A DNA stretch of 64,000 nucleotides from Macrosoma leucophasiata (lineage: Eukaryota > Arthropoda > Insecta > Lepidoptera > Hedylidae), in assembly GCA_036365455.1 (NCBI GenBank), contig JAWQUS010000004.1, positions 1,433,501 to 1,497,500 of the forward strand. The letters are read 5' to 3'. Of this stretch, positions 1,201 to 54,824 are shown one piece after another (the first letter of the stretch is position 1; every line of letters starts with the position of its first letter). Below the pieces are notes generated by a model that made no database searches, had not been told where the DNA came from, and was given only the letters and a program-made list of their open reading frames with translations. Position numbers and translations under genes: made by a program.

Positions 1201-1545
1201 GTTTTATATTATTTCGCATTAACACATGCTTGTGAAATATATTTTATTTTTAAAGAAAAATGGAAAGAAAAATTTGACTTCAGGCGAGACTCGAACTCGC
1301 GACCTACTGGGAATCTAGTCCAGCCGCGCTTATATCGGTTGCCTAACTAGCATAGTTGGTAATAGATGGCGCTGCTGCTACCATAAAGCAATGCAATAGA
1401 TGTGAAGGAAAGATTTGACAAATCGGGCAGGGCTTCAGTAGCTCAATTGGAAGAGCGACTGGACTAGATTCCCAGTAGGTCGCGAGTTCGAGTCTCGCCT
1501 GAAGTCAAAATTTTATTTCCATATTTCTTTAAAAATAAAATATAA
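1201..1545. mobile_element. palindromic tRNA-like element, copy 1
   Basis: A tRNA-like sequence faces inward from each end: a minus-strand 3' half at 1275-1330 and a complete plus-strand copy at 1432-1507. The plus copy has a 7-bp acceptor pairing (CTTCAG with CTGAAG), a D arm with GCTC/GAGC, a T arm GCGAG-TTCGAGT-CTCGC and an enlarged anticodon loop. Both are flanked by the same AT-rich sequence (aaagaaaaatggaaag and its complement). Other copies are at 14048, 14725, 44738 and 55498. Confidence 0.75.
1432..1507 (+). ncRNA. tRNA-like module (pseudo-tRNA)
   Basis: A cloverleaf can be drawn, but the anticodon loop is about nine bases (ACTAGATTC) and not seven, and the module sits inside a dispersed element. 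It is read as tRNA-derived transposon sequence and not as a functional tRNA gene. Confidence 0.5.
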
Positions 1546-2974: not shown

Positions 2975-5900
2975 CTGTAATTTGATGAGCCGGTCAGTTG
3001 GTTAGTCCGCCGGCCAGCTGCCGGCACAGTGTGTAGGGGGGTGGGGGAGGGGGGGTGTACCTGTGGGCGGGCGGCGGGCAGCAGGGCGCGCACGAGGCGC
3101 ACGGCCAGCTGCCGGCACAGTGTGTAGGGGGGTGGGGAGAGGGGGTGTACCTGTGGGCGGGCGGCGGGCAGCAGGGCGCGCACGAGGCGCACGGCCAGCT
3201 GCCGGCACAGTGTGTAGGGGGGTGGGGGAGAGGGGGTGTACCTGTGGGCGGGCGGCGGGCAGCAGGGCGCGCACGAGTCGCACGGCCAGCTGCCGGCACA
3301 ATGTGGGGGAGGGGGGGTGTACCTGTGGGCGGGCGGCGGGCAGCAGGGCGCGCACGAGTCGCACGGCCAGCTGCCGGCACAATGTGGGGGAGGGGGGGTG
3401 TACCTGTTCAGCAGGCCGCGCACGAGACGCACGGCCAGCTGCCGGCACAATGTGGGGGAGGGGGGGTGTACCTGTGGGCGGGCGGCGGGCAGCAGGGCGC
3501 GCACGAGACGCACGGCCAGCTGCCGGCACAATGTGGGGGAGGGGGGGTGTACCTGTTCAGCAGGCCGCGCACGAGACGCACGGCCAGCTGCCGGCACAAT
3601 GTGGGGGAGGGGGGGTGTACCTGTGGGCGGGCGGCGGGCAGCAGGGCGCGCACGAGACGCACGGCCAGCTGCCGGCACAATGTGGGGGAGGGGGGGTGTA
3701 CCTGTTCAGCAGGCCGCGCACGAGACGCACGGCCAGCTGCCGGCACAATGTGGGGGAGGGGGGGTGTACCTGTGGGCGGGCGGCGGGCAGCAGGGCGCGC
3801 ACGAGACGCACGGCCAGCTGCCGGCACAATGTGGGGGAGGGGGGGTGTACCTGTGGGCGGGCGGCGGGCAGCAGGGCGCGCACGAGACGCACGGCCAGCT
3901 GCCGGCACAATGTGGGGGAGGGGGGGTGTACCTGTTCAGCAGGCCGCGCACGAGACGCACGGCCAGCTGCCGGCACAATGTGGGGGAGGGGGGGTGTACC
4001 TGTGGGCGGGCGGCGGGCAGCAGGGCGCGCACGAGACGCACGGCCAGCTGCCGGCACAATGTGGGGGAGGGGGGGTGTACCTGTTCAGCAGGCCGCGCAC
4101 GAGACGCACGGCCAGCTGCCGGCACAATGTGGGGGAGGGGGGGTGTACCTGTGGGCGGGCGGCGGGCAGCAGGGCGCGCACGAGACGCACGGCCAGTTGA
4201 TGGCAGAGCGCGGCCGCCTCACAGTAGGCACACGACCCGCCTGCCGCGCCAGACACGCAATCCGCTAGAAATCAAGGTCAAAATAAAAATACAAAAGCGT
4301 GTCTGCATTTCACACGTGGAAGAAGTGAAACTTTTAAAAATTTAATAAAAGACACCGCATGACACGTTTTCCATCATTTTTTCTTAAGTTAAATCTTATG
4401 AATGAAACAGACTAGTAAGTCTGTCTCTTTTTACTGTCGCGTTTTCGTTTCATCGGCTTCCAAAACACAACGATGCTAAATAAGTGTTCACTTCAAAAAG
4501 CGATATTATTTTATTTCATCACAACGGAACCGACCAAGGGAGCCCTATATCTTTACTGGGTGTAGGCGGTGTAAGGGGTGTAGGCGGTGTAGGCGGTGCA
4601 CGCGGCAATTTCAATTTCAATGTATTTTTGCTTGTTGCATGGTACATTTTATGGTCTTAAAATTAAATTTTATGAGCTAAATAAATGTAACACCCCCGTA
4701 GGGCATCGCAAAAAAATAAAACAGCATTTAATATATGTACCTACTTACCAGCTTCGTAGGCTCGATGTGCAATATTTCTTGATGAGTGTGTAGAGGTAGG
4801 TAGGTGTTATAAGCAGTTACCGTGGTGCGGCGTGTTGGCCTGGTTGGACTTGAGCATGAGGCGCAGCAGCTTGGTGGCCTCGCTGCTGACGTTGGCCAGG
4901 TGCACGCGGTGCTGCTGCAGCTCCAGCTGGACACAGACACACAACGACCAGTATAATTATCACAGACCTAGTAGGTTAGCATCCCACTGCTGAATCATTT
5001 CGCTCATCTACGAGTAGATACGCTGCAAACCTACATTTTACGCATATTTAAAATCTAGAGAATATATATCCACTAGGTTGCCTATCAAAATTTGGCCGCA
5101 AGTAAATATAATATAAAGATAATATAATTTGCTCGCTGATAAAGATAATATAATTTAATTAAAAATAATTAAATTATATTATCTTTATCAGCCAGCAACT
5201 CTTATTTGTGACCGATTTAATTTGGCTTTCGTGTATCATAATAATATGAAAAAAAAATAGCTTTAATGTATAATATAAAAATAAGTCGGGTTTTCCTTCC
5301 TGACGCTATAACTCCAGAACGCTCCAACCGATTTCGACGGTTCAGGATTATAAAACGACATCCACGCGGGCGTAGCCGCGGGCAACAGCTAGTTTGATAT
5401 ACAAAAAATACATGTACGCTAAGGACATAAAAATTATCGGAGCGGAACGAAAATACATAGGGACGCCCAAGTGCGCTATAGATTTTTTAAATTATATGAC
5501 TTAAATACTCGTATAAATTTAAATCGAGTAAATGTGAAGTTTTAGTTAGCTTAGTTATTGAAATTGGTAAAAAGGTTAAAATCATCACAAGTAATGATAA
5601 AAGTGACATTTATTTTTTCGCGTATTGTATCTCACTAGCAATAAATTTCTTGAGACATTTTTAAAATAATTTCAGTTGTTTTCTAGTTTATCCATTACAA
5701 ATAAGGCTGACCTGTTTGAGCAGTATGTCGAGCATGAGTATACAGCAGGTGAGGTTCTGCGGCTTCATTTGATCGCCTTTTTCTTTGTCCTTCTCCACGC
5801 TTGGCGGCCCGTTCGAATCCGTCTCCTTGCCTTTACCACTCTCTAGAATAAATACAACAATTACGGACAGCAAAACTTTCTAACTTGCTCATAGGAGTTG

Positions 5901-8900
5901 TATTCCCTTTAAGAGCATCATGGTACACAAAACTTATGTTGTGAATCATTTAAGCCCTTGTCAAACACAACTGCTAACCGAACCGAACCTGAACTAGGGC
6001 CAGCGAACCGAACTCGTGGCGAAAGCGAATCGTAGCGGAAGGAACTTCACTCTTGTGTTTTGGTCAAAAATTGACCAAAATGGTCGACAAACGTCACATT
6101 GCTAAGGTGTGAAAGAAATAACGCTCTACAAACCCAATATCACATAATATCAAGCAGGCTCCCTCTATTGACTCATTTAAAATTCAAGAAAAAAAATATT
6201 TTTTGTCAATCTTCAACTTAATGCTTCCCCTGTACCTATTGTGAGTGTTCATGTTTGTGTGTCATTGTTATCATCATTATGGTCGTCTTTGGTTTTGTTT
6301 ATGTGTATAATTTATACCTTCATTCTTCTTTACTATGTATTCTTTTCTTCTTCCTTTTAGTTTCTTGTACACCCTACTGTTTGATTATTTATAATTATTT
6401 CTCTTGTATTCATTGGTGGTTGCCTGGAAGAGACTGTTCTCTTAGCGATAAGGCCGCCAATTGTACATTTTTTTTGTTGTTATTTTGTGTTTATAAAACC
6501 GTATCTTTGTAATGATGTACAATAAAGAATATTGTTGTTGTTATCAGTCGAAGTCTTCTTACTAGGGTCGACGTGCAATATTATTTGTTGGATACAGTGT
6601 ACGTTCAATCTGGTGTTAATCGCTGTCGTGGTACATTATAATGAATATAAAACATATTTTTGAATATCACCTTGTGGCGGCTTGCATATCTTTTCCGGGA
6701 AGTTGACGACGCAGTGGCTGAACACCTCGAACAACTGCGAAAGCGGTATCTTCACCTCCAGTAGAGATATGGTCTGAAATGTTGCATTAATAGTATTGGT
6801 GACCTACTAAACTTCGACACAAATTGATTTGATACATTAAATTATTATTGACAAATTTATAATTATCAGTCGAAAGATGTCCACAGCTGGACCAGAATTC
6901 CCATAAGGAGGATATACTATGTCATATGCCATGCTGCAGTAGGAAGGGGGCGAATCACCTGGAACTAGTGCAGCACGGGCGCGCGGCGTGGGGTCGGCTG
7001 CAGTAGGCGGAGAGGGGGGCTACAGAAGGGGGAGAGGGGGGATGGGGGGGATAGAAGGGGGAAGGAGAAGGTCACCTAGAAACAGTGCAGCATGGCCGCG
7101 GCGGCGGGGGGGGATTGGGACTGTAGTAGGCAGGGGGGGAGCTACAGAAAGAGGAAGCAGTAGGTCACCTGGAACCAGTGCAGGACGGCAGCGGCAGTGG
7201 GGGGCGGGTTGGGGCTGCAGTAGGCAGGGGGGGTCTACAGAAGGGGAGACGAGCAGGTCACCTGGAACCAGTGCAGCACGGTCGCGTCGGCGAGGAGGGT
7301 TGGGGCTGCAGTAGGCGGGGAGCGAGCCACAGAAGGGGGGAGTAGCAGGTCACCTGGAACTAGTGCAGCACGGGCGCGTCGGCTAGAGGGGTTGGGTCTG
7401 CAGTAGGCATGGGGGGAGCTACAGAAATGGGGGAGGAGCAGGTCAGCTGAAACCAGTGCAGCACGTCGCGTCGGCGGGGGGGGTTAGGTCTGCAGTAGGC
7501 GGGGGGGAGCTACAGAAGGGGGGAGGAGCAGGTCACCTGGAACCAGTGCAGCACGGGCGCGTCGGCGGGGGGGGTGGGGTGTGCTGTAGGCGGGGGGAGC
7601 TACAGAAGGGGGGAGGAGCAGGTCACCTGGAACCAGAGCAGCACGGGCGCGTCGGCGGGAGGGGTTGGGTCTGCAGTAGGCGGGGGGGAGCTACAGAAGG
7701 GGGGAGGAGCAGGTCACCTGGAACCAGTGCAGCACGGGCGCGGCGGCGGCGGCGGTGGGGTGGTCGCCAACACGTTGGGCGGCAAAGCGGTACAGTTGGC
7801 GCTCGTCCACGCCCACCATGCTACCGTCCGGCTCCAGGATCTTGCCCACCGCCACCTTCAGCTCGCACAGCTCCTGCACACAGAGAGACATATTTCATCG
7901 ACAATAAAATGTCGAGTATCGTTTGTAACCCGCTGTATCATCATCACTTCCGCCGAAAGACTTTCACTGCTGGACAAAGGATTTCCCAAAGATGCACCCT
8001 GATAGTGTTGTGCATAATTGAACAATTGAATTGACTGACAAGCGTGGCAATTTTGGCATATGCTCCCATATGCTAAAATTGCCACGCTTGTCAGCCAGAA
8101 TGGCGATAGCAGTGACGGTAATTTTATCGCGAGATGCCGCTGCCCAACCTGTATTTTGCATTCACTACCGCCTTATTGGAAAAAATTAAACTCCCATTGT
8201 TCGGTTGACTGACTGCACTTGTCGAATAATATCTTACACTAATGGGCGGTGGGACCATCACGTCGCCAAACTATTGATACATTATACCAGATAAATTGTG
8301 TCTAATTCAAATTAAGTATAATACCTTCTCTGGAACATCGGTGCAAATAGCTTCCATCCACGCCGGCATGATGTAATCCCAGATAGACTGCGTGATAATT
8401 CCATATGGAATCAGGCAGTATAAACTGAAAAACAAATAAACATGTAAGTTAGTCCATAATATCACACACAACTTAAAACTCAGGAAAACGTTAACTTAAG
8501 CCCGTGTCAAATAGACAGCGAACCGAAAGCGTACAGAAGCGTTTATAGTTTGTTATGGTATCGTTATAATCTAGTCAGATAAAAAATCTAAAGCGAACCG
8601 AATGCGTGCCGATACCGAGGCGAATGAAAGCATGCGCACCAAAACAAATGTAACCTTGTAATTAGTATTACAGAGACAATTTAATGCCAAGCGTGACCCC
8701 GTACCAGCTAAATGGGTGTATTGGATGGTGTAAAAAAACCACGGAAGCAATCTTAACAAGTTTACGTGTAATACTCGACCAGCTAAAAATATATGGTGGA
8801 CGTACCGGTCAAGGCCTTCCTTGAGGTGCGTGGCCTCGGAGGCCAGGTTGTCCCAGTGTCCGGCGTAGCGCGTGTGGAGTGTGGGGGCCTACGTACCGGT

Positions 8901-11900
8901 CGAGGCTCTCCTTGAGGTGCGTGGCCTCGGAGGGCAGGTTGTCCCAGTGTCCGGCGTGGCGCGTGTGGAGTGTGGGGGCCTACGTACCGGTCGAGGCCCT
9001 CCTTGAGGTGCGTGGCCTCGGAGGCCAGGTTGTCCCAGTGTCCGGCGAGGCGCGTGTGGAGTGTGGAGGCCTACGTACCGGTCGAGGCCCTCCTTGAGGT
9101 GCGTGGCCTCGGAGGCCAGGTTGTCCCAGTGTCCGGCGAGGCGCGTGTGGAGTGTGGAGGCCTACGTACCGGTCGAGGCCCTCCTTGAGGTGCGTGGCCT
9201 CGGAGGCCAGGTTGTCCCAGTGTCCAGCGTGGCGCGTGTGGAGTGTGGGGGCCTACGTACCGGTCGAGGCCCTCCTTGAGGTGCGTGGCCTCGGAGGCCA
9301 GGTTGTCCCAGTGTCCGGCGTGGCGCGTGTCGAGTGTGGGGGGCCTACGTACCGGTCGAGGCCCTCCTTGAAGTGTGTGGCCTCGGAGGCCAGGTTGTCC
9401 CAGTGTCCGGCGTGGCGCGTGTGGAGTGTGGGGGCCTACGTACCGGTCGAGGCCCTCCTTGAGGTGCGTGGCCTCGGAGGCCAGGTTGTCCCAGTGCCCG
9501 GCGTGGCGCGTGTGGTGCGGCGGGTGTGGCAAAAGGCACGAGACGAGCACACGACGCCGAGTTTCGGCTATCTTCCGGACCCAGCCGCAAACGTGTTCTA
9601 ACTTCAGTTTTTCCACCATGTTCGCCGTTTCTCCTGAAAATATTACTTCATCGATCTACTCGTATATGTATTGGTTGGGGAAAAAGTTTCTTCGCATTTT
9701 TTAAGATAATTCAAAACATTTTTTAATATAGTTTATTTAAATGTAACTTGTATGTACCATTTTGTTCGATAACCTTTTTGCTATAAAAATTTTGGGACTT
9801 CTCATCAAACTACCGCGACAAGTGTATTTGGCAGTCCTCTCGTGATGTTAACCTAACATTGCATAAAGAATTCTGAAGAGACCGAAACAGGTGGAAATCT
9901 GAAGGTGCAAGGTCAGGACTATACGGCGGATGCATTAACACCTCCCAGACAAACTCTCTTCATTTTTGCTGAGTGGCTATAGATGTGTGAGGTCTAGCGT
10001 TATCATGATGAAACACCACACCCTTTCTGTTGATCAATTCCGGCCGCTTTCTCTCAACTTCTTGCTTTAATCTCATCAGTTGTTCGCAGTAGAGTTCAGA
10101 ATCGATAGTCCTGCCTGGTGGTAATAGCTCATAATGAATAATGCCCTTCCAATCCCACCACACACACAACATCACCTTATTGCGAGTTAACCCGGTTTTC
10201 GCCACAGTCTATGAAGCCTGACCGGCTTTTGACCACGACCTTTTTCGCACGTTCTTGTCGTACGTGATCCACTTTTAATCACCAGTTATCAGCTTCTTCA
10301 AAAATTATTCGGTTTCATTACGTCGTAATAAAGAATCACAAATGAGTACACGGTTCATTAGGTTTCTTTCAGTGAGCTCGTGAGGTACCCAAATATCGAG
10401 CTTTTTTTTGTACCCAGCTTTTTTCAAATGCCCCAAAACTGTTTTGTGATAAATTCTCAGTTCTTCAGCTACGTCGTAATTACTGATATGTCGATCATGC
10501 TCCACTTTTTCAAAAATGGCATCCATTTTATCCGTAATAGGGCGACCAGAGCGAGGTGCATCTTTGACATCAAAATTTCCGGATTGAAAACGCTTAAACC
10601 AAATTTGTGCTACTCTCACAGACACTGCACTAGGTCCATAAACATCGCAAATTTTTTTCGCGGCTTGCGTTGCATTTTTACCTTTTTTGTAGTAAAATTT
10701 TAAAATGTATCGAATTTCTTCATTAGATTCGCTCATCTTGACAGTACGAAAAACAAATGAAAATCACACATTTGCCTAGTTTGAATTTGGAATTATGTTC
10801 TTTAAAATTTTAACTTTCAATGATACCAAAACCAGCCAGATACAAATACTACCAAAGAGCCAAAGAGATTTTATTACAAGTTCATACATACTATAATGCG
10901 AAAAGACTTTTTCCCCAACCTATTATGATATATATTATAAAACAACAATTTATCCCCCGATACGTCAGTCTGTCTGTCTATCTGTTAGCTATAAACTCAA
11001 CGACTACTTCAAGGATTTTCATGCGTTTTTCACCACCAGATAGAGTGATTCATACGGAAGGTTTGTGTGTAAATTGATTAGGATATTTAATTAGCCGGTA
11101 TTACCTGGTTAGTCCAGCGGTGTGAGATGACCGTTTGATTCGATGGGTAGCGGGTTCGATCCCCGCACCGGGTCAAATATTTGTATGGTCTACAGATATT
11201 TGTTTCGAGTCTGGATGTTTGTGTATGTGTTGTATATATAGATATACAACGGCACCCACGACACAGGTTTATACTTTCTGTGTGGCTGTGAGTGTAAACG
11301 TATTTTTTTTATCAACTTAATATTTCCCACACATACAATAATAACTATAAATACACATACATTCTTCATTTTTTTTTATGTAACTGAAGTGGCAAACAAG
11401 CGTGCAGTTCACGTTGATGTTAAGTGATAACTGCAGCCTATAAACACCCACACAAAGACCAAGGTCAAAATGCAGATGCGTTAACACTCCTGAGGCCTAA
11501 GATGTTATGCCTCTGTGCCGAAAATTACAGGGCCGTACATTACCACCTGACCGAAACACGATAGTGCTGAACACTACCATTTAGCGGCAAGTATATTAGG
11601 TAATGCGGTGGTGCCTACGCCCGCGAGCTCCGTAACTGGAGCTCTACCACCAGTAAAATATTCATATTGACGAATTATCTTTAAAAAAAAAACTAGTCAA
11701 GAACATAATAACATATTATTTTTAAAAGACCTAAAAAATAAGGAATTCTATGTTCTACTGCATTTATGTTCACCGTGGGCTGATTTGATTTATAGTCTTA
11801 CGCCGTTTGAAAGGGTAAGCCTTCCAAGTTGGCCCCATTTCCCATGATAACACCATAAGATCCCTTGGTTGCCATTGGAAAATCGAAGAAAATCTTTAAA

Positions 11901-14900
11901 AAAAACGGTGGCTCGGACCGTAGATCTACAGTAGGCAAAATTGGTGTCCCGACTTCTAAATATTCCATAACTTTAACTTTAACTTTTTTTGGTATTAATT
12001 TCGTTTTCTGTTATATTTCACTTCTTAGAAATAGAATTATCTAGTTGTTGAAGTTGGTATTTTTTAAGGTTTTTTATATTGTGCTTTTATATGTGATCGT
12101 GTGTGCGTGTATTTACGTATGTCCCACTAACCGGTGTAAGCGTAGGAGGTGACATGGAACCAGTGGAAGAGCACGGAAAGCAGGCGACCGAGTACTTCAT
12201 CCGGTGTATCAGGATTGGGAGTGCATAGACCCACCATCAGCCATACGCCGTATCTGCCGAAAAGGCATGTGTTAACAGGGGCCTTATTCTCGTAAAAGCC
12301 TTGTATTTGAATCAAAAAGTCATATTAGGTAAATAAGTCACATACCTGCCAAGCAACTGTCGATCTTCGACAGATATGGGGTCCGGTTGGTTGACGCATA
12401 GGGGCGGCTTCAGTTGTTCTGTGCTGTCTGGGTCTTCTATATTCAGGGGTTTGGCTTCCTTGAGCAGACTGTTCGAGTAAAATAGACGATATAATGGGTA
12501 TTCATATTTTAATAACAATAATAATGTTCTCCAGACCGAATTTCGGTCACGGCGGCCAATCTCAACGGAGACTGACCAGTACATAAAAAAAAATTTTTTT
12601 TTTTTTACTTTCTTACGTCATTGTGTCCAGAATCATGAGTAGGTACTATTACCAGCTTTTTTTCAAAAGAATTCCCTAGATACCTTGTATATTTATCTCC
12701 CTCTATTCTTGACACCATCACCGAAGCAGAGAATAACCGCAGGTTACCTGATGATGGCCTCCACCAGGTTGGTCTGCATGTCCCCGTCCATGTGCCAGGC
12801 GGGCGGCAGGCGCGTGTGCCCCACGGGGGGCAGTTACCTGATGATGGCCTCCACCAGGTTGGTCTGCATGTCCCCGTCCATGTGCCAGGCGGGCGGCAGG
12901 CGCGTGTGCCCCACGGGGGGCAGTTACCTGATGATGGCCTCCACCAGGTTGGTCTGCATGTCCCCGTCCATGTGCCAGGCGGGCGGCAGGCGCGTGTGCC
13001 CCACGTGGGGCAGTTACCTGATGATGGCCTCCACCAGGTTGGTCTGCATGTCCCCGTCCATGTGCCAGGCGGGCGGCAGGCGCGTGTGCCCCACGGGGGG
13101 CAGTTACCTGATGATGGCCTCCACCAGGTTGGTCTGCATGTCCCCGTCCATGTGCCAGGCGGGCGGCAGGCGCGTGTGCCCCACGGGGGGCAGTTACCTG
13201 ATGATGGCCTCCACCAGGTTGGTCTGCATGTCCCCGTCCATGTGCCAGGCGGGCGGCAGGCGCGTGTGCCCCACGGGGGGCAGTTACCTGATGATGGCCT
13301 CCACCAGGTTGGTCTGCATGTCCCCGTCCATGTGCCAGGCGGGCGGCAGGCGCGTGTGCCCCACGGGGGGCAGTTACCTGATGATGGCCTCCACCAGGTT
13401 GGTCTGCATGTCCCCGTCCATGTGCCAGGCGGGCGGCAGGCGCGTGTGCCCCACGTGGGGCAGTTACCTGATGATGGCCTCCACCAGGTTGGTCTGCATG
13501 TCCCCGTCCATGTGCCAGGCGGGCGGCAGGCGCGTGTGCCCCACGGGGGGCAGTTACCTGATGATGGCCTCCACCAGGTTGGTCTGCATGTCCCCGTCCA
13601 TGTGCCAGGCGGGCGGCAGGCGCGTGTGCACCACGTGGTCTCCGCCCCGCCGGCTGTTGTGGCGGTTGCCGTGGCACTGCTGGCAGTATCTGCACGAACC
13701 ATGCCGACATCTCACTCAACATTTCATGTTTATACAGAAAAATCCATAATTCAAACCAATCGCCTAGAATATTTTATCTATATTATAAAAATAAGTCGGA
13801 TTATCCGTCCTGACGCTATAACTTCAGAACGCATGAACCGATTTCCACGGTTTTGCAAAGAAAATTCAAAAATAATATTTATAAAACGACATCCACGCGG
13901 GCGAAGCCGCGGGCAACAGCTAGTGCTAAATAAATACGCTTACACTCAGCCCACACTAGGTATGAACCTGTGACGTGGGTACCGTTGCAAATAAATAATT
14001 GAATTGTGATACACTAACACCCAGACCCGAAACAAATATTACAAATTGTTTTATATTATTTCGCATTAACACATGCTTGTGAAATATATTTTATTTTAAA
14101 GAAAAATGGAAAGAAAAATTTGACTTTCTTTAAAATAAAATATATTTCACAAGCATGTGTTAATGCGAAATAATATAAAACAATTATTAAGGGTAAAAGC
14201 GACTTCTTTACGATATTCAACAAACTGCAAAATCTATTATATCGGTTGCCTAACTAGCATATTTGGTAATAGATGGCGCTGCTGCTACCATAAAGCAATG
14301 CAATAGATGTGAAGGAAAGATTTGACAAATCGGGCAGGACTTCAGTAGCTCAATTGGAAGAGCGGCTGGACTAGATTCCCAGTAGGCCGCGAGTTCGAGT
14401 CTCGCCTGAAGTCAAATTTTTCTTTCCATTTTTCTTTAAAATAAAATAAATATTACAAATATTGGTGCCGGTAATAAATAAAACTAAAATAAGTAAAAAA
14501 GATACCTGATGGGATGATTTCCATTGTAGCTCGCACACTCGTTGGAGAAGCAAATAGAGTACGCTGATTTATCGTTCGATCGACAGTTCTGAAACAACAT
14601 AACAATATAACTTTTAAAACACTCACGTTTAACACTCATTTTACTAATTTTACGATTTTATGAGTCTGTCCACGACCACGGCCCGGTTCGTAAATTAGTA
14701 AAATGAACATAATAATAATAATTGTTTTTATATTATTTCGCATTAACACATGCTTGTGAAATATATTTTATTTTAAAGAAAAATGGAAAGAAAAATTTTG
14801 TGTTCAGGCGAGACTCGAACTCGCGGCCTACTGGGAATCTAGTCCAGCCGCTCTTCCAATTGAGCTACTGAAGTCCTGCCCGATTTGTCAAATCTTTCCT

Positions 14901-17900
14901 TCACATTTTATTGCCTTGCTTTATGGTAGCAGTAGCGCCATCTATTGCCAACCATGCTAGTTAGGCAACCGATATAATAGACTTTTCAGTTTATTGAATA
15001 TCGTAAAGAAGTCGCTTTTACCCTTAATAATTGTTTTTATATTATTTCGCAGTAACACATGCTTGTGAAATATATTTTATTTTAAAGAAAAATGGAAAGA
15101 AAAATTTGACTTCAACCTGCAGATTTCAGGTTGCCTAACTAGCATGGTTGGCAATAGATGGCGCTACTGCTACCATAAAGCAAGGCAATAAAATGTGAAG
15201 GAAAGATTTGACAAATCGGGCAGGACTTCAGTAGCTCAATTGGAAGAGCGGCTGGACTAGATTCCCAGTAGGCCGCGAGTTCGAGTCTCGCCTGAAGTCA
15301 AATTTGTCTTTCCATTTTTCTTTAAAATAAAATATAATAATAATATTTTGAATTTCATCCACTGTGAATTTCCTATGAAGTATTTATTAGATATATATAG
15401 TATATATAGTATATATAGTATTTATTTAGAAATTTATCGGAAACTTGGAGACTCTTAAACTGTTTGAGCCAGGTTACTTACAAATGATTGGTGACCCATT
15501 ATTAATTCGCGAGATTTCCAAAAAATTTACGCGGTACAAATCATAATCACGAACTCAGTATTGACTAGTCATCGACCAAATATAATTGTTGGTAAAAGGG
15601 ATGTTGACTAATTTATTTTTATTGATTTCCTAAAGAGCATTGGATAAATAAATACTATTTGTCTTAGAAACATATAGTCAATAAGTGATATAGTTGTTAA
15701 AACAGCACATTATGACGTCACCGATGAATTGAATGGTGAAATCAAGAAAATTAAATGTTAGAAGCGCATTTTTATAAGCATTTACATCTTTTGACTGTCC
15801 AAGGTCCAGACAAAGGAGATGTTGCAAAAATGTATGGACCTCCGGCCATGTATTGTACACAATATCATTAACAGGCAAAATCAATATAAAAACGTTTTTT
15901 ACTGCATATATTCACTTATTAAGCTTTGTTTGCAGTTACAAAACATTATTTGCAGTTAGAATTGCAACTCAAAACCAACATGGCGAAAATGGCGGGCGAT
16001 GTCATTTTGACAAATTCCACTAATAATCATATTGAAAATGATAAAATCGTTTGAATTAAATGTGGTTGTAACTCTAAAATATATTCTTGAATAAATGAAT
16101 TGTATTTTTTTCGGATACTTCTTTAATTTACCCATTTTTTGAGGTAGTGTACGAACCAGAGCCGAGCTCGCAACATGTCCTTTCTGAATCTCAACATGAT
16201 AATGTTACAACTTACAGGCAGTATTTTATGACCACAACAGTATCTTTATATCTTTCTAATACCAGTACTTACCTTATTTTCGCACACCATCGATACTTGC
16301 TGTTGAGGATGTAGGATATCAAAGAATCTCTGGTTCGGGTGTTCCCTGTCAACAATGAAATTGAATTGTGTGAAGAATTTTACAAAGTCAAACTTAATAC
16401 TCGTGTCGGGAGTGAACGCTTTTCTTCGTAGGGAAGTCCTGTGAATTTCTAGCAAAAATTATGTTTTGGGGAAATTCGTAGAATCATTCATCTATACTAA
16501 TATTATAAAGCTGAAGAGTTTGTTTGTTTGCTTGAACGCGCTTATCTCAGGAACTACTAATCCGATTTGATAAATTCTTTCCGTGTTAGATAGCCCATTT
16601 ATCGAGGAAGGCTATATATATACACACACACACACACGCACACGCTTAGATGAGTAGGAGGGTAGGTAACATTAAAACCGCGCGAAGCCGGGGCATGCCG
16701 CTAGTAATTTGCAATTAGTTGAAAATTATCGTCAAATCGACGTCAATTATTCGTACTTTCGATTTGAAGTAGTAAAGAGTAGGATCAGATCAGTGGTCGC
16801 GACCAGCAGGACGGCGCGGACATATTATTATCGGGAAACTGCGGGTCAATGAACGTTGGCGCACTCGATTCATAGGAAAAGCCGCGCGGCAGTACACAGC
16901 GGGGCACAGGGGAACAGGGGGGTAGTACACAGCGGGGCACAGAGGAACAGAGGGGCAGTGGGACAGTGTGGTAAATAGGCACAGGGGGACAGGAGGGCAC
17001 ACACCGATGTATCTCGTTGGCGCATTCGATGCAGAGGTAGAGCGGCGGGGGCGTTTCGGGGACAGCGAGGTAGGGGCAGGAGGGCAGGGGGGCACACACC
17101 GGTGAATCTCGTTGGCGCACTCGATGCAGAGGTAGAGCGGCGGGGGCAGTGGGGCAGGGGGGCAGGGGGGCACACACCGGTGTATCTCGTTGGCGCACTC
17201 AATGCAGAGGTAGAGCGGCGGGGGCGGTCCGGGGGCAGCAGGGCAGGGGCAGGGGGCAGGGGGGCACACACCGGTGTATCTCGTTGGCGCACTCAATGCA
17301 GAGGTAGAGCGGCGGGGGCGGTCCGGGGGCAGCAGGGCAGGGGCAGGGGGCAGGGGGGCACACACCGGTGTATTTCGTTGGCGCACTCGATGCAGAGGTA
17401 GAGCGGCGGGGGCGTGTCGGAGGCGAAGGTGACGCTGATACAGTGGTCGTAGCACACCTTCGCGGCCTCCGCGCTGCCCGCGTTCGGGCACATGTCGCGC
17501 TGGCACAGGAACGGCACTTGCTCGTCTGCAAACACATAATATAAAAGCAATGTTATTTGCACACTCCACAACACCATTAACATTAAAATCAAAATCATTA
17601 AAATCTCTAACGCAAAACACCGTTTTGGGCATCTATGGGGAAGGGTTTCGCCCAGCAGTGGACGTCTTTAGTTATGTCGGTAACCTTGGTTCTAATGCGG
17701 TAGTGTTTGGAAAGTTTGAAATAAATACTTTATGAATAAGCTAACAATTCTCTCCTCAGTAACTACTGGTTCAGATTGATTTTTTTTTTATTTTTATGCA
17801 AGTCGTATATAAGGCAGACTTGATGCCACTAGACATTCTTTTGCAGTCAATTTTTATATTGGAGAGCTAATTTATGTAGAAAGGCTATATGACACCGCTA

Positions 17901-23900: not shown

Positions 23901-26900
23901 TTGTGCATCAGCCGCAGTTGGCAGTCGTACAGGCTTCGGATCTTCGCAGTGACTGTAATTATTCACAACTGGCAACTTCTTAACTTCATTTAAAAATGCA
24001 TGTTAATATTAGTTAGAAAAATGTAAGAAGGCAAACACAAAATTTCGTTTCAGTAGCTTTTTCTGTTTTTTAGGCGAAGTAAGCACACAAGGACTTTTCA
24101 GGCAGGGCATCTCAGCTATTTGCTGCAGCAGGCACTGTAACTCTGATAGTGCACGCTTGTTTGCCACTTTTGACTACCCGGTTAGTCCAGCGGTGCGAAA
24201 CCACCGTTTGATTCGAAGGGTCGCGGGTTCGATCCCCGCACCGGAACAAATATTTGTATGGCCTACAGAAATTTGTTTCGGGTCTGGGTGTTTGTGTATG
24301 TGTTGTATGTGTACAACGGCACCCACGACACAGGTTTATACCTACTGTGGGGCTGTGAGTGTAAGCGTATTTTATTTTATTTTATTTATTTATTACTTCC
24401 ATTACATAAAAAATATCAATAACTATTCTACATACTATATGTATGTAGAATAGTTATCGATTTTTTTTCGAAGTTTGAATACTTTACAAAGGAGACGGGT
24501 AATTTTGGGCCTGCAAAATCGTTACTAGTTAATCCATTACACAGTACATTTGATAGTTAACAATTAGCAATCTAACCCAACTTTTAATTGATCATTATAA
24601 ATCAATTACTGGAAATTCAAAAAAATCCCGCATCTCAAAATATTTATTTTATAGCCATTTGAAAATGACATAATTTGTACAGTGTATACACTTGAGCCCA
24701 GGAATGTATGGAACAGAATCATACTCCTTTACTTTTAATTTTAACTACTATTGAAAACGTGCCACACATGCAACTGATCAACATGCAGTGTAAAAGGTGC
24801 TTAAGTTATAAGCAAAACTCCGCCTGAGCCTAGTAACGATAGGTACATTGTCGATTATTAATACGAGTCATCTAATCTGGTAGTAGAGCTCCAGTGACGG
24901 AGCTCGCGGGCGTAGGCACCACCGCATTACCTAATATACTTGCCGCTAAATGGTAGTGTTCAGCACTATCATGTTCCGGTCAGGTGGTAATGTACGGCTC
25001 TGTAATTTCCGACACAGGGGCATAATACCTTAGGCCTCAGGAGTGGTAACGCATCTGCATTTTGACCTTGGTCTTGGTGTAGGTGTCTATAGGCTGCAGT
25101 CACCACTTAACATCGATGTGAGCTGTATGCTTGTTTGCCACTTCCATTACATAAAAAAAACTGATCAACATGCTGTGTAAAAGGCGCTTAAGCAATAAGC
25201 AAAACTCCGCCTGACCCCAGTAACGCTAGGTACATTGTCGATTATTAATATGAGTCATCTAATCGAATATAATAATATGATCCTAGGAAAGAATATGGTC
25301 TTGGCTTCAATATCAACTGCAGTGTCATTACACAATGTTAACTTCATAATTTCGTAGAGCTTCCAGTGGCGGAGCTCGATGGCGCAGGGACCACCGCATT
25401 ACCTAATCTACTTGCCGCTAAATGGTAGTGTTCAGCGCTATCGTGTTACGGTCAGTTGACCCTCTGATTTCTAGGACAGATGTATAACCAGTTGACTATA
25501 TGACATAAAAGTAACAACGGGTTGCACTCTCTGTGTACGGGCAGTGGTGAAAACTTGAATATGCACTACGTTAAGTGCATTTTGACCACCACCACCACCA
25601 CAGCTGACAGCTGTAATTGGGTCTCCAAAAAGTAAGCGGACGCTTTTCTGGTCACGTGTCCGTCTTACGCATTTTCGATCAGGGTCACGTGTCCTGACGC
25701 GAGTTGATCGGAGAGGACAATTTGATCTTTAAGGACAAATCTGTAAACCATATGTTTCATGCATCATAATATTGCATCTTTTTTTTGCATATTTATATAA
25801 AAATTAACAAAATTTTGGAAACTTATATATAAACTTAAAATAAAACTGTAGAAGTATGAATTCTGTACATTAAAAATATTTTTTAAAAATACCAGGGGAT
25901 GTTACTATATCGATACCGAACACAAATATGTGATTAGAAAATTTTGTCTGTCTGTCTGTTTGTTCAAGCATCACACTAAATCTACCGGTCCGATTACGAT
26001 GAAACTTGATATAATTATACTTTAACCTTTGGCACACAACACTGGGTACTTTTTTCTGCAGTTTCACTAATATATTGTGGTAAGTTTTACTAAGCATTTA
26101 GTGTTTGTTTCGTATCAATCGGTTCAGAAATAAAAAAGTTAGGACAATTCAAAGAATCATATCGAATATTTTTAACTATTCTGTATCTATCTTCTATCTT
26201 TTAATAATAATAATAATAAATACTTTTTATTGCACACCAAAAGTACATGTATACAAAAAAAAACACTTAAGAAATATGTGGTACCAAAGGGCAGCCGTAT
26301 CGCTAAAAGAGCGATTTCTTCCAGGCTTTTTAGGGGGTTTCTTACCTAAAAGGTAAAAACGGACCCTACGGTTTACTAATTCTCCGCTGTCTGTCTGTGT
26401 CTGTCACCAGGCTGTATCTTTCTAAAAGTTCTTTCAGTTTTAGATAGACCATTTATCGAGGAAGGCTTTAGGCTACATAACATAACTTTAAGATTAATAG
26501 GAGAAGGTAGGTAACATTGCAACCGCGCGAAGCCGGGGCGGGCCGCTAGTAGTTAATATAATAGGTTGGGGAAAAAGTCTTTTCGCATTATAGTATGTAT
26601 GAACTTGTAATAAAATCTCTTTGGCTATAGTATTTGTATCTGGCTGGTTTTGGTATCATTGAAAGTTAAAATTTTAAAGAACATAATTCCAAATTCAAAT
26701 TAGGCAAATGTGTGATTTTCATTTGTTTTTCGTAATGTCAAGATGAGTGAATCTAATGAAGAAATTCGATACATTTTAAAATTTTACTACAAAAAAGATA
26801 AAAATGCAACGCAAGCAGCGAAAAAAATTTACGATGTTTATGGACCTAGTGCAGTGTCTGTGAGAGTAGCACAAATTTGGTTTAAAATTTTGATGTCAAA

Positions 26901-29900
26901 GATGCACCTCGCTCTGGTCGCCCTATTACGGATAAAATGGATGCCATTTTTGAAAAAGTGGAGCAAGAACGACATATCAGTAGTTACGACGTAGCTGAAG
27001 AACTAAGAATTGATCACAAAACAGTTTTGGCGCATTTGAAAAAAGCTGGGTACAAAAAAAAGCTCGATATTTGGGTACCGCACGAGCTCACTGAAAGAAA
27101 CCTAATGAACCGTGTACTCATTTTTGATTCTTTATTACGACGTAATGAAACCGAATCATTTTTGAAGAATCAATCAATCAATCAATCAATTTATTAATTG
27201 CCAACATGTACATATACATTACATTAAAGGTCTTATACATATAACACTTACATCAGTAGTTAAGTAGGTACATTCTATGGGGCATCGCAATATGGAGTAC
27301 AGAGTGATTTGTCTTGCAGTCATATTAATTTATCAAATAGGTACATAATATTGTCATTTGTAGGTATTTAACACATTCTTGATTAATGGCATAATATGTC
27401 ACAGCGTTAGATAGTGAAAATTTTTAAATAATTACCTACATTTAAAATGTCAAATAAAAATGTCAATAATTTAAGAATGTTAAGATTACAATAATAAGTC
27501 AATTTGATAAAATAAATGTCAATATAAAATTAAAAAAAATAAAATCCATTTCACTGTTTATCGCGTAAGAATTCATCGACTGTATAATAGCATTTCAATA
27601 TTAAATAGGACTCAAGTTTCTTAAGGAATTGCTTGTCATTAGTTACAGTTTTCAAATTATTTAGAATATTATTATATAATTTTACAGCTTTATAATGTGG
27701 TCCCTTTCTGTATATATCCATATCTCCTATAGGTAGTTCTAATAGATTTTGACGTCTTGGATTTTTACAGTATGTAAATAATACATTTAAATTTCGCCTT
27801 ACGAAATACACTGCTTCCAAAATAAAAATTGATGGGAATGTCAAAATACTCTCTTTCACGAAATGCGGTTTGCAGCTATCTCTAGGCTTAATACTAAAAA
27901 GAATACGTAAACACTTTTTCTGTAGAATAAATACATTATGCGCTTCTGCGCTATCCCCCCACAATAAAACACCATAACGCAACCACGCGTAGGCATACGC
28001 ATAGTATGCAGCTAGTGATGCTTCACGGTGCGTATTTGTTTTGAGAATAGCCAGGGCATACGTGAACTGAGAGAGTTTAGCTTTCACGACTTGGATATGA
28101 CTTTCCCAAGTGAGGTGGGTATCAACCGTGATCCCTAACAGGTTATATTCGTTAACTTCTTCAATATTTAATTTATTCGAAATTTGTGATAAGTCCAGCT
28201 TATTTTTTTGACGAGGTCGGAATTGCATAATTTTGGTCTTTTTAAAGTTAACTTCCAGGTTATGTTTAGATAACCAGTTTTGTACCTTCGTAAAACTCTG
28301 TGTGATATTAATTATGTTTTCATTGTTATCAGTCTTACACTTAAATAATATTGATATGTCATCCGCAAATAATATACATGGATGGTCTAGGACGTCTGGT
28401 AATTCGTTAATGTATATCAGGAAGAGGACACAGCCGGCTACGGTTCCTTGAGGAATAGACCAGTTCGTGTATTTTATTTCAGATTTCGCAATTTGTACTT
28501 CACACGTTTCATTGTTATAGGATTCTATTTCGACGTATTGTGATCTATTGTTTAAGTAGGATTTAAACCACCCGTGCGCTTTCCCTCGAATCCCTATGTT
28601 ATATAATTTTGATAGCAGTATACTATGTGAAACTTTGTCATATGCTTTCGTCATGTCAAGTAAAATACTAACCGCGTAATGCTTGTCTTGAATGTATGTA
28701 AGTCCTTCTTGGATGTATTTTATAACCGCATAAAGAAGCTGATAACTGGTGATGAAAAGTGGATCACGTACGAAAAAGGTCGTGGTCAAAAGCCGGTCAG
28801 GCTTCACAGACTGTGGCGAAACTCGGGTTAACTCGCAATAAGGTGATGTTGTGTGTGTGGTGGATCGATTCTGAACTCTACTGCGTACAACTGATGAGAT
28901 TAAAGCAAGAAGTTGAGAGAAAGCGGCCGGAATTGATCAACAGAAGGGATGTGGTGTTTCATCATGATAACGCTAGACCTCACACATCTATAGCCACTCA
29001 GCAAAAATTAAGAGAGTTTGGCTGGGAGGTGTTAATGCATCCGCCGTATAGTCCTGACCTTGCACCTTCAGATTTCCACCTGTTTCGGTCTCTACAGAAT
29101 TCTTTATGCAATGTTAGGTTAACATCACGAGAGGACTGCCAAATCCACTTGTCGCGGTATTTTGATGAGAAGTCCCAAAATTTTTATAGCAATGGGATCA
29201 TGTCCCTACCTACAAGATGGCAAAAGGTTATCGAACAAAATGGTACATACATACTTTAGTTAAATTTAAATAAACTATATTAAAAAATGTTTTGAATTAT
29301 CTTAAAAAATGCGAAGAAACTTTTTCCCCAACCGAATATAATATATATATATATATGTAAGCTAGTGTATGTAATAATAGCTCAGGCAATGAATCTGTGA
29401 ATACATATTCTCATGCATTAATGAAAGTTAAAAAATAAGCTAGTTATATACATAAGGCCATTGTCATTTCCTATATGCTAGCATATACTTGACTTAAAAA
29501 TACTTATTACTAAATGGTATTTCCAAATAAGGTAAAAAATATCTATACAATCTAAATATCATTGATTCAACGTTTTAGAACAAAAATAAGAATCCTACAT
29601 ACTTTAGCTTGAAATCTCATTCAGGCACTTACATTGTTCAGGTAGATACATGGAAATAACTTCTCATACAATACGAGTATTTATAATGAGACGAGAAAAG
29701 AGCAATGCTTTAAAAATAATTTACAAAAGGCAAGTACCTATCTCTTACTCTGTCTTGTTCCTTTCATTTGCACTGTAATTAAATAAACTTGAAACCTAAT
29801 TTAATCATTAAATGTTTGGTTCTTAAATCTCCCAGGGCACCAGAAAAATATGACAATTGATTTCTTATTGTACTTGGACCCAATCGGGGCCATTGCGGCT

Positions 29901-52659: not shown

Positions 52660-54150
52660 ACACGGTAGAGCCCTTGCTGATGGTCCATCAGTAGAGTAAC
52701 AATGACGACAGTGTAATCAACTTATTTGTAAGGCTTGGTATCAGTATCACATAGTGAGATAGCCCCATATCTAGTGACGGATTCTTTTTAAAAGTAGCAG
52801 TAGTGTTAGTGAAAGGTTGCGCTAGCATTAGACAGTCGTTAGCAAGGTATATTTCGTTGCAGTTACGTCAGCAATCACCAAGAAAGAGGAGGGTGTAGTT
52901 GAATAATCAGACAGAGGATTACTTGCGACTGTTATCAGCCGAGACGCAATGACGACAGTTTAGGAGGCGTTGGCTGGTGAAGGATCAGCGTTCATTATCG
53001 ATGGCAAAGTTTTCGCTTGGCAGCGAGGATTTGCTTGAAAACACGTCCGTATCGAATATGGCGAAACGACCAGACAGAATTTTGATGGCAGTCGTCAGTA
53101 TAACAATGATGGCAGTTTAAGCGGCGCTGGCGTCAGATGACGGATTATTAGCGTCCGTTTTGATGGCAAGGTCTTCGCCTGGCCATTGAGGCCATCAAAC
53201 GGCAGTGGCCTTCACCAGGAGGTATACTTGTGGGTCGTCATAATTAGTATCTATGCTTATTGCGATAGGGACGCATTAGTTCTCATACGTCCGAGTTGGG
53301 AAGGAAGGTTTGCAGAATGTTTGTCAAACGGAGTACTAGTGTCTGTTATCGGTAGAGTAGAAGTTTAGGCGGCGTTGGCGTCATGACGGATTACTACTGT
53401 TCATTATTGATGGCAAGGTCTTTGCCTATTAAAGACTATCAGATGGCAGAATACTTGTGTTTCCGTCATCATCAAAGTGACAATGATAGCAGGGCAATCG
53501 ACCATAATCATCATAATCATTTATTCACAAGAACATAGTATTACATGCTTCGGTATTAAATATTTGATTGTATCATATGTTCTGCCGCTTATGGCATGCG
53601 AATTTTCAGTAAATAACATACTCTTACAGCTTGAATTTCATACAAGCCTCGTCGTCACACGGTGGAGTACTTGTAACCATTTGAGTCTGTAGCAAGGTAT
53701 ATGTCTTTTACTTGGTTAGGTCAGCTAGGAAAGGCTGGGATGTACTCTGACGCAGGCAGCATCAGGTTTCATCAGACAGCGGATTATTTATGGCCGTCGT
53801 CGGTGGAGGAGAGTGGCAGTGGAACCGATGTCGTCACATACTTCGGCGGTGATAACGGAGTATGCCTGAGCATCTACGTCCGTCAACCATCCGCGGATTC
53901 TGTGGTAATGACATGTGTCTTTTTCTTGGATAGGTAATGCTCGGATGTACCCCGACGCAGGCGGCGCCAGGTGTTATCAAACGTCGGAGTACTTATGACC
54001 GTCGTCGGTTGAGTAGATTGGTGGCAGTGTAACCGACGTCGTCACATACCTCGGCGGTGGTAAGGGAGTATGCCTGAGCATCTACGTCCGACAACCATCC
54101 GTGAAGTTTGTGGCAAAGTCTTGTATAGGTAACGCTGGGATGTCGCAACC
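52660..54150 (-). repeat. degenerate copies of the LIM-exon end
   Basis: At least six diverged units resemble the last LIM exon (plus strand: tcagacggcggagtacttgt...gtggtggcagtg). Near 53965-54030 the match is strong (tcggagtacttatgaccgtc); at 53780 (cagcggattatttatggccg), 53440, 53325 and 53075 it is weaker; at 52910 only 'tcagacagaggattacttgc' remains. Similarity falls steadily with distance from the exon. Confidence 0.78.
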
Positions 54151-54274: not shown

Positions 54275-54636
54275 ATGTGACGCACGCGCACGTCGGCCGC
54301 CAGGTGGAGCCAGGTGCGTCAGGCGTGTCAGGCGTGTCAGGTGTGTCAGGTGTGTCAGGTGTGTGAGGTGTGTGAGGTGCGTCAGACGGCGGAGTACTTG
54401 TGTCCGTCGTCGGTGGAGTAGCAGTGGTGGCAGTGCAGGCGCCGCTGCCGCACGCGCACGTCGGCCGCCAGGTGGAGCCAGGTGTGTCAGGTGTGTGAGG
54501 TGCGTCAGACGGCGGAGTACTTGTGTCCGTCGTCGGTGGAGTAGCAGTGGTGGCAGTGCAGGCGCCGCTGCCGCACGCGCACGTCGGCCGCCAGGTGGAG
54601 CCAGGTGTGTCAGGTGTGTCAGGTGTGTGAGGTGCG
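54275..54636 (-). repeat. LIM-exon-end tandem array (coding tail, stop and 3' UTR)
   Basis: Units of about 125-135 bp contain the codons for RLHCHHCYSTDDGHKYSAV, the TGA, and a short (caggtgtgt)n stretch. Two complete copies and a partial one lie between 54275 and the true exon end at 54637. The coding part is almost unchanged. The number of caggtgtgt repeats differs between units. Confidence 0.92.
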
Positions 54637-54824
54637 TCAGACGGCGGAGTACTTGTGTCCGTCGTCGGTGGAGTAGCAGTGGTGGCAGTGCAGGCGCCGC
54701 TGCCGCACGCGCACGTCGGCGCCGGCGCGGCCGTCGCCCAAACGCGCGCCGCACACCGCGCACGTGAAGCACCACACGTGGTAGCAGAGCGATAGCGACT
54801 CGATTATCATCGCCGCGCCGCGAC
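54637..54824 (-). CDS. smash: LIM gene, last exon (LIM domain and stop)
   Basis: 62 codons including TGA, entered in phase 1 after ATTCGCAG. It encodes GAAMIIESLSLCYHVWCFTC to GHKYSAV, i.e. six of eight zinc ligands. It is very GC-rich and is the parent of the tandem array that follows the stop. Confidence 0.93.

What the first reader, a model, noticed from the sequence alone, without database searches (positions are those of the whole stretch)
3008..17410. Five tandem arrays in one gene, each built from an exon's 3' end plus its 5' splice site
After unc79 exons 7, 10, 13, 15 and 19 the intron contains 5 to 15 tandem copies of a unit of about 68-98 bp. Every unit starts within the coding exon and ends a few bases to tens of bases into the intron, so each repeats a functional-looking AG|GT junction. 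The chance that unrelated minisatellites would all straddle a splice donor, in the same gene and orientation, is very low. Either splice-donor DNA or the U1/transcription machinery nucleates duplication, or donor arrays are tolerated or useful. I know of no named process that produces this.
Basis: partly seen in the sequence, partly recalled or inferred. Interest (0 to 1): 0.95.

Follow-up and report, generated by a model that had tools for sequence, protein, structure and literature searches.

The report
Minisatellites grown from exon 3' ends
In this moth or butterfly genome many genes carry long stacks of near-identical copies of the last part of an exon plus its splice signal, almost always on the downstream side of the exon, which looks like mutation-prone DNA sieved by the direction in which genes are read.

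Summary
In the window, five unc79 (minus strand) exons are followed by tandem copies (6-15 counting the exon) of the exon's 3' end plus the 5' splice donor. The rest of unc79 holds ten more such arrays: 15 of 15 sit on donors. Two capped genome-wide lists drawn with GC-rich 7-mers unrelated to the donor gave 31 long-unit arrays: 29 on donors, one over a stop codon of a last exon, one stop-or-donor, none on acceptors, mid-exon or intergenic. A third, complete control list held one long-unit array, and it covers an acceptor. The rule is thus 'downstream edge of a GC-rich exon', mostly but not strictly the donor. Arrays lie near contig ends (18 of 31 within 2 Mb; kinase loci 9 of 60). Pooled, donor bases in copies are no better conserved than exon bases beside them. 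Best explanation: GC-linked tandem duplication filtered by reading polarity, because the first donor or stop met is the true one. Which donor is used was not measured, and a donor-specific mutational mechanism remains possible. One genome, no RNA, no reads.

The parts
4149..4264 (-). unc79 exon whose 3' end seeds array 1
   Evidence: gene model (one open frame), UNC79 match
3008..4196 (-). array 1: 15 copies counting the exon, 81-bp (two of 90-91) and 68-bp variant units, exon 3' end + GTACAC donor
7718..7873 (-). unc79 exon seeding array 2
6940..7761 (-). array 2: 9 copies of about 91 bp, the most diverged array of the window; CAG|GTGACC donor; copies at lower coordinates tend to be more decayed
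9444..9633 (-). unc79 exon seeding array 3
8800..9515 (-). array 3: 8 copies of 91 bp, CCG|GTACGT donor
13558..13689 (-). unc79 exon seeding array 4
12743..13635 (-). array 4: 10 nearly identical copies of 90 bp, CAG|GTAAC donor; use of a distal donor would read an in-frame stop
17366..17525 (-). unc79 exon seeding array 5
16888..17414 (-). array 5: 5 good copies (steps 78-95 bp) plus decayed sequence, CCG|GTGTGT donor
54356..54720 (-). array at the end of a LIM-domain gene's last coding exon; the unit contains the exon end and its TGA stop, no evident donor
   Evidence: LIM Pfam match
53726..54101 (-). older, more diverged repeats downstream of the same LIM exon

Best explanation
These are GC-rich minisatellites born by tandem duplication of GC-rich exon DNA and sieved by the polarity of gene reading. 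(1, inferred) GC-rich exons, above all towards contig ends, suffer tandem duplications of roughly 75-180 bp. (2, pattern shown, cause inferred) Of these, mainly the ones spanning the downstream edge of a coding exon persist: RNA polymerase, spliceosome and ribosome meet the true donor (or the true stop codon) before any copy, so copies fall silently into the intron or 3' UTR. A duplication spanning an acceptor or start puts the copy's signal first and changes the product, and one inside an exon changes the protein. (3, partly shown) A surviving duplication grows by slippage or unequal exchange; copies homogenise, and those far from the exon tend to decay because nothing conserves them. They have no evident function.
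For: 15 of 15 unc79 arrays on donors, the one LIM array over a stop. Lists from 7-mers unrelated to the donor: 29 donor, 1 stop, 1 stop-or-donor, 0 acceptor, 0 mid-exon of 31. Donor-like pattern 377 matches against 61 for its backwards control; 9 of 9 fetched clusters are donor arrays, 7 with the exon beyond the array in view and 2 (L028, L032) from unit text; in L026 and L028 the pattern had matched the wrong strand by accident. Exon GC: last-60 GC .67-.75 in the 5 window exons with arrays.40-.68 in the 14 without, Mann-Whitney p .0025. In those 14 array-free exons intron GC is no higher after the donor than before the acceptor (my means of the printed values.32 and .36), so composition alone does not make the asymmetry. 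Contig-end lean 18 of 31 against 9 of 60 kinase loci, p 3.5e-5; in Lepidoptera GC and repeat density are higher and coding density tends to fall towards chromosome ends (PMC11009112, passages). With exon-proximal donors the window exons give one open frame aligned to UNC79; of 36 distal donors listed (at most 9 per array) 31 bring an in-frame stop, 4 more shift the frame and 1 does neither. Pooled, donor bases in copies are not more conserved than exon bases. Units are mostly exon. Identity to the exon falls with rank in 9 of the 12 arrays with a defined coefficient and is about zero in 3.
Against: No RNA data: use of the exon-proximal donor is inferred from frame and homology only. Recalled in-vitro splicing work (Reed and Maniatis 1986, not read here) found intron-proximal sites preferred among duplicated sites, which would make donor arrays harmful. 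One acceptor array with about 18 copies exists, so the filter leaks, and a second candidate could not be read. Absence of acceptor arrays could also reflect a mutational bias. In 4 of 40 arrays the measured intron part exceeds half the unit. The rank-decay trend has p<.05 in only 2 arrays. In the most diverged array the donor 9-mer is better kept than the exon part (.056 against .223 mismatch), though the reverse holds in A1372874 (.247 against .096). One distal donor of array 3 (183 bp) adds an in-frame, stop-free insert. All from one genome.
Confidence: 0.62

Rival explanations
1. A mutational mechanism nucleates duplication at exon 3' ends or donors: transcription or splicing machinery (U1 binding, polymerase pausing, R-loops, nucleosome edge) makes this edge break or slip, so the bias is in origin and not in survival.
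For: 29:1 donors to acceptors; unit ends fall close to the donor (median 31 bp into the intron); no compositional asymmetry between the intron sides of array-free exons.
Against: Stop-codon arrays have no evident donor in the unit; arrays depend on exon GC and contig-end position, which a donor mechanism does not predict; linkers are C-rich in some arrays and G-rich in others on the sense strand (my reading), so there is no single R-loop orientation.
Confidence: 0.17
2. Ordinary minisatellites, donor overlap by chance or because GC-rich DNA is exonic.
For: GC-rich, homogenised units leaning to contig ends, as minisatellites are (recalled).
Against: Explains exons but not the one-sidedness: 0 acceptor and 0 mid-exon of 31.
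Confidence: 0.1
3. The arrays are useful: multiple donors recruit U1 to speed or secure splicing or to guard against premature polyadenylation.
For: GT intact in 109 of 116 downstream copies (sum of the per-array counts); in the most diverged array the donor is kept better than the exon part.
Against: Pooled, donor 9-mers in copies mutate as much as neighbouring exon bases (about 4.5 percent each, my means); another array shows the reverse; arrays track exon GC and contig ends; 14 of 19 window donors have none.
Confidence: 0.06
4. Assembly artefact or collapsed/expanded repeats.
For: No reads could be inspected.
Against: Copies carry distinct variants, period variants and decayed distal copies; the same architecture appears in dozens of unrelated genes on many contigs.
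Confidence: 0.03

Closest known systems
Minisatellites / VNTRs
   Same: GC-rich tandem units of tens to about 100 bp, homogenised copies, leaning to chromosome ends (the last recalled for humans).
   Different: Each unit is cut from its own exon's 3' end plus donor or stop; units run to 178 bp; one-sided at exon edges across many genes.
Variable internal tandem repeats at exon-intron boundaries in human segmental duplications (De Grassi and Ciccarelli 2009, PMC2812944; outline and passages read)
   Same: Minisatellite-like repeats at exon-intron boundaries that change intron structure.
   Different: There 27 intron modifications in recently duplicated genes, and no donor/acceptor polarity in the passages read; here unrelated genes and strong polarity.
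Intron gain by tandem duplication of AGGT segments (Rogers 1989, Hellsten 2011, both as cited in PMC4974935; passages read)
   Same: Tandem duplication around an AG|GT leaves the protein unchanged when the duplicate is spliced out; fission yeast cases with several copies of a 24-bp unit are cited there.
   Different: No new intron is needed here: the donor is taken to exist already and copies lengthen its intron. The potato case in that paper duplicates the acceptor side.
Introners / introner-like elements (recalled)
   Same: Repeated sequence carrying splice signals.
   Different: Not a dispersed family: units differ between genes and come from the local exon.

Membership tests
Minisatellite / VNTR | Head-to-tail copies of a unit of roughly 10-100 bp | tested here: met
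   (75-178 bp, so some units exceed the usual range)
Minisatellite / VNTR | GC-rich and leaning to chromosome ends | tested here: met
   GC .62-.75 in the unc79 arrays; 18 of 31 sampled arrays within 2 Mb of a contig end; contigs are taken for chromosomes, not proved
Minisatellite / VNTR | Copy number varies between individuals | not testable with these tools
   one assembly only
Intron gain by tandem duplication | Duplicated segment carries a splice junction such as AG|GT | tested here: met
   for donor arrays (exon ends CG, AC and TG occur besides AG); not in the stop-codon arrays
Intron gain by tandem duplication | A new intron appears inside a former exon | not tested
   unc79 introns were taken as pre-existing; no orthologous gene structures were compared
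Introner-like elements | The same sequence family sits in many introns | tested here: not met
   each array read has a unit from its own exon
Exon-boundary internal tandem repeats (De Grassi type) | Tandem repeat spanning an exon-intron boundary | tested here: met
Exon-boundary internal tandem repeats (De Grassi type) | RNA evidence of changed splicing | not testable with these tools
   no transcripts available

The most novel reading that the evidence does not exclude
Exon 3' edges are themselves duplication hotspots: a transcription- or splicing-coupled process repeatedly duplicates the exon end together with its donor (or stop region), so that introns in this lineage grow by accretion of exon ends. 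The polarity then reflects how the duplications arise and not which ones survive.
Probability: 0.15. Interest if true: 0.9.

Novelty: new variant of a known kind. Interest (0 to 1): 0.72.

Why it matters
If the sampled counts hold for the whole genome, one animal genome carries probably several hundred natural experiments in which a few to about 20 near-identical donors compete downstream of one exon. They would show directly in vivo whether the first donor wins, a standing question about 5' splice-site choice. They also show a simple way for introns to lengthen, and a polarity rule for which duplications a gene can absorb.

Tried and rejected
Acceptor arrays could not be counted with an acceptor-like pattern (TTTNCAG x3, 655 matches against 216 in the control): of the rows with readable text most are a dispersed AT-rich element with a repeat of about 99 bp, and most listed rows carried no text. 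A gene finder for the left part of unc79 (a first version failed on a syntax error) recovered plausible exons but chose wrong donors at some arrays, so it was used only as a guide. Function through conserved donors: looked for, not found in the pooled data. Literature: ten searches were answered, three of them with capped lists (15 of 34, 10 of 692 and 12 of 247). Apart from the two papers compared under Closest known systems I saw no listed title or abstract opening that describes such arrays; this is weak evidence of novelty, as subscription papers are missing. Species: the best named relatives of the pyrexia protein are Danaus 94 percent, Ostrinia 93 and Leguminivora 90; species not identified. 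Rows dropped before counts: C3:9564035 (single AT-rich match), C4:6190424 (40-bp AT-rich unit), the seven other clusters (units of about 8 to 52 bp on C13, C16, C30, C31; not examined for exon edges), two clusters already counted, and kinase matches on contigs of unknown length. L049 and L060 were called donors from unit text only, as were L028 and L032. Of 51 donor arrays seen, measured 40; 7 were dropped by the script because the second copy lay outside the stretch, and 4 (L028, L032, L049, L060) were not given to it. The 7-mer CGTGCTG was chosen after I had seen it in one unc79 array, which reappears in its list.
Full report
Observation. TRF on the window lists five GC-rich long-unit arrays between 3011 and 17414. 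I built the minus-strand gene by hand from acceptor and donor contexts: 19 exons, one open frame, 828 aa as searched, which aligns to a solved UNC79 homolog over query residues 2-648 and 685-778 (E 2.9e-155). Each array lies on the 3' end of one of these exons. Copies and donors were located by sliding the last 45 exon bases plus 6 intron bases downstream: 6 copies at 17366 (the last decayed), 10 at 13558, 8 at 9444, 9 at 7718 and 15 at 4149, counting the exon itself. The finding is confirmed.

The rest of the gene. The window lies at C4:1433501-1497500 of a 616-Mb, 61-contig assembly that can be searched. I fetched 100 kb on each side, joined it with the window and ran TRF. Ten further GC-rich arrays lie where unc79 continues (C4:1371449-1425146). 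The first copies and flanks and the copy measurements show each to be exon 3' end plus GT donor; one (A1374185) has only about two copies. A crude gene finder read open exons resembling UNC79 (my reading) up to several of these arrays. So 15 of 15 unc79 arrays are on donors. The sixth exon-edge array in the window, at 54356-54720, is different: it repeats the end of a LIM-domain exon (Pfam LIM, E 2.8e-08) including its TGA stop, with older repeats at 53726-54101. The other rows are short-unit, AT-rich or about two- to three-copy; I did not examine each for exon edges.

Donor pattern over the genome. AGGTRAG three times at 77-107 bp spacing matches 377 times; the same pattern read backwards, 61 times. 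The listed places, a capped list, fall into 10 clusters on C1, C2, C3 and C5. I fetched 9 (the tenth is a single AT-rich match): all 9 are exon-end plus donor arrays in different genes, 7 with the exon beyond the array in view and 2 (L028, L032) from unit text. In L026 and L028 the pattern had matched the strand opposite to the real donor, yet the array was still a donor array.

Splice-neutral lists. To avoid choosing donors I used GC-rich 7-mers unrelated to the donor. CGTGCTG x3: 340 matches, 16 clusters in the capped list on C1-C7. One is an unc79 array of the window and one is L033. I fetched the other 14 and read them: 16 of 16 donor, L049 from the unit text only. GTCGTGC x3: 131 matches, 18 clusters in the capped list on C1-C21: 2 already counted, 1 short AT-rich unit, 15 new. 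Fetched and read: 13 donor (L060 from unit text only), 1 last exon with a TAG stop (C1:771178; RING finger), 1 that can be read as stop or donor (C21:19978770, ClpX-like by my reading, no Pfam match). The backwards control pattern GARTGGA listed all its 61 matches, in 8 clusters, only one of them with long units, which supplies 16 of the 61. That one, C24:22301163-22302853, lies before a stromalin exon (Pfam SCD, E 3.4e-07) and repeats the acceptor plus the exon's 5' start about 18 times. So acceptor arrays do occur. Totals over the three lists: 29 donor, 2 at or possibly at a stop, 1 acceptor; donor against acceptor 29:1, p 6e-8. None of the 32 was mid-exon or intergenic. The lists favour GC-rich units of 77-107 bp and say nothing about GC-poor arrays.

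Genes. I scanned 18 exon peptides: 13 had a Pfam match at E up to 0.001, 5 had none. Above the curated cut-off: integrin EGF, Sel1, Arf, RING, SIR2, LIM (window gene), stromalin, NF-X1 (from the exon before the array) and P-type ATPase. Below it: LIM (L062), Sec3 C-terminus, MFS and DUF1744. Other names (VPS13, liprin, neurobeachin, TPP2, ClpX) are my reading.

Anatomy. Over 40 donor arrays the unit is 75-178 bp (median 95.5), exon part median 68.5, intron part median 31; 4 of 40 are more than half intron (divergence of the first copy or a variant unit inflates some of these). Units are divisible by 3 in 11 of 40, near chance. The cleanest young case (L045) repeats 94 exon bases with 13 linker bases, 12 of them the start of the intron, and then runs on into the single-copy intron. 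In several arrays (for example at 9444 and 13558) the linker is C- or G-rich and is not the intron sequence that follows the last copy, so the arrays have evolved since birth. In L056 a distal copy keeps exon bases that the inner copies have lost, so inner copies multiply from each other and are not repeatedly copied from the exon. Identity to the exon falls with distance in 9 of 12 arrays with a defined coefficient (-.29 to -.95), is about zero in 3, and has p<.05 in 2.

Substrate. The five window exons with arrays are among the GC-richest at their 3' ends (.67-.75 against .40-.68, p .0025); two exons of .65 and .68 have none. Arrays lie near contig ends: 18 of 31 within 2 Mb, against 9 of 60 kinase loci (p 3.5e-5; kinase matches on the 14 contigs whose length I knew, collapsed at 20 kb). 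In chromosomal lepidopteran genomes GC and repeat density are higher, and coding density tends to be lower, towards chromosome ends (PMC11009112, passages read). That fits GC- and recombination-linked duplication.

Why one-sided. Array-free exons show no GC excess in the intron after the donor over the intron before the acceptor, so substrate alone does not explain the bias. A polarity filter does: on the downstream side the genuine donor or stop is met before its copies; on the upstream side the copy's AG or ATG comes first. The stop-codon arrays are what this filter predicts and what a donor-specific mechanism does not. The protein evidence agrees: exon-proximal donors keep the frame and align with UNC79, and 35 of 36 distal donors listed bring a stop or shift the frame. 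Splicing itself was not observed. The stromalin acceptor array shows that the filter leaks, or that exon definition can also pick the exon-proximal acceptor.

Function. GT is intact in 109 of 116 downstream copies, and pooled the nine donor bases diverge as much as the exon bases before them, about 4.5 percent each. Single arrays disagree: at 7718 the donor is better kept (.056 against .223), in A1372874 worse (.247 against .096). On balance I see recency and not constraint.

Extent. From overlaps between the capped lists I estimate a few hundred arrays of 77-107 bp units: 11 x 9 / 1 shared on C1 to early C5 and 16 x 5 / 2 shared on C1 to early C7, scaled to 616 Mb, give about 700 and 190 (my arithmetic). 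This rests on one and two shared arrays and is only an order of magnitude.

Known work. Human tandem repeats at exon-intron boundaries (PMC2812944) and intron gain by tandem duplication (PMC4974935) are the nearest. In the passages read neither reports a donor-side polarity. I place this as a new variant of exon-boundary minisatellites.

Noticed in passing
C24:22300300-22303700 (L035, L036): Acceptor-side array before a stromalin-like exon, about 18 copies of a unit of 98 bp or a little more; the only acceptor array seen, and a natural test of 3' splice-site choice.
   Followed up: partly
   Followed up: no
C1:11204265-11205470 and many other places: Dispersed AT-rich element with internal tandem repeats of about 99 bp in facing pairs on opposite strands, perhaps a foldback transposon.
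   Followed up: no
L051 (C5:22788300-22789300, minus strand): The exon before the array exon is followed by one decayed copy of its own 3' part: an old two-copy duplication, suggesting that more decayed cases exist.
   Followed up: no
L059 (C9:1498200-1499150): The preceding intron holds another array whose unit carries both an acceptor-like TCTGCAG and a donor-like AAG|GTGGGC; it may repeat a whole small exon.
   Followed up: no
window 37152-40214 (minus): Intronless-looking pyrexia-type TRP channel gene (94 percent to Danaus) upstream of the unc79 exons; TRF lists no long-unit array in it although parts of it are GC-rich.
   Followed up: partly
window 9650-10920, 26570-29330: Two mariner-like elements (my reading); the second is split by a reverse-transcriptase-like ORF at 27551-28936.
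   Followed up: no
window 1209-1510, 14040-14450, 14700-15340, 55480-55660: Repeated tRNA-like short elements in both orientations (SINE-like, my reading), some as inverted pairs.
   Followed up: no
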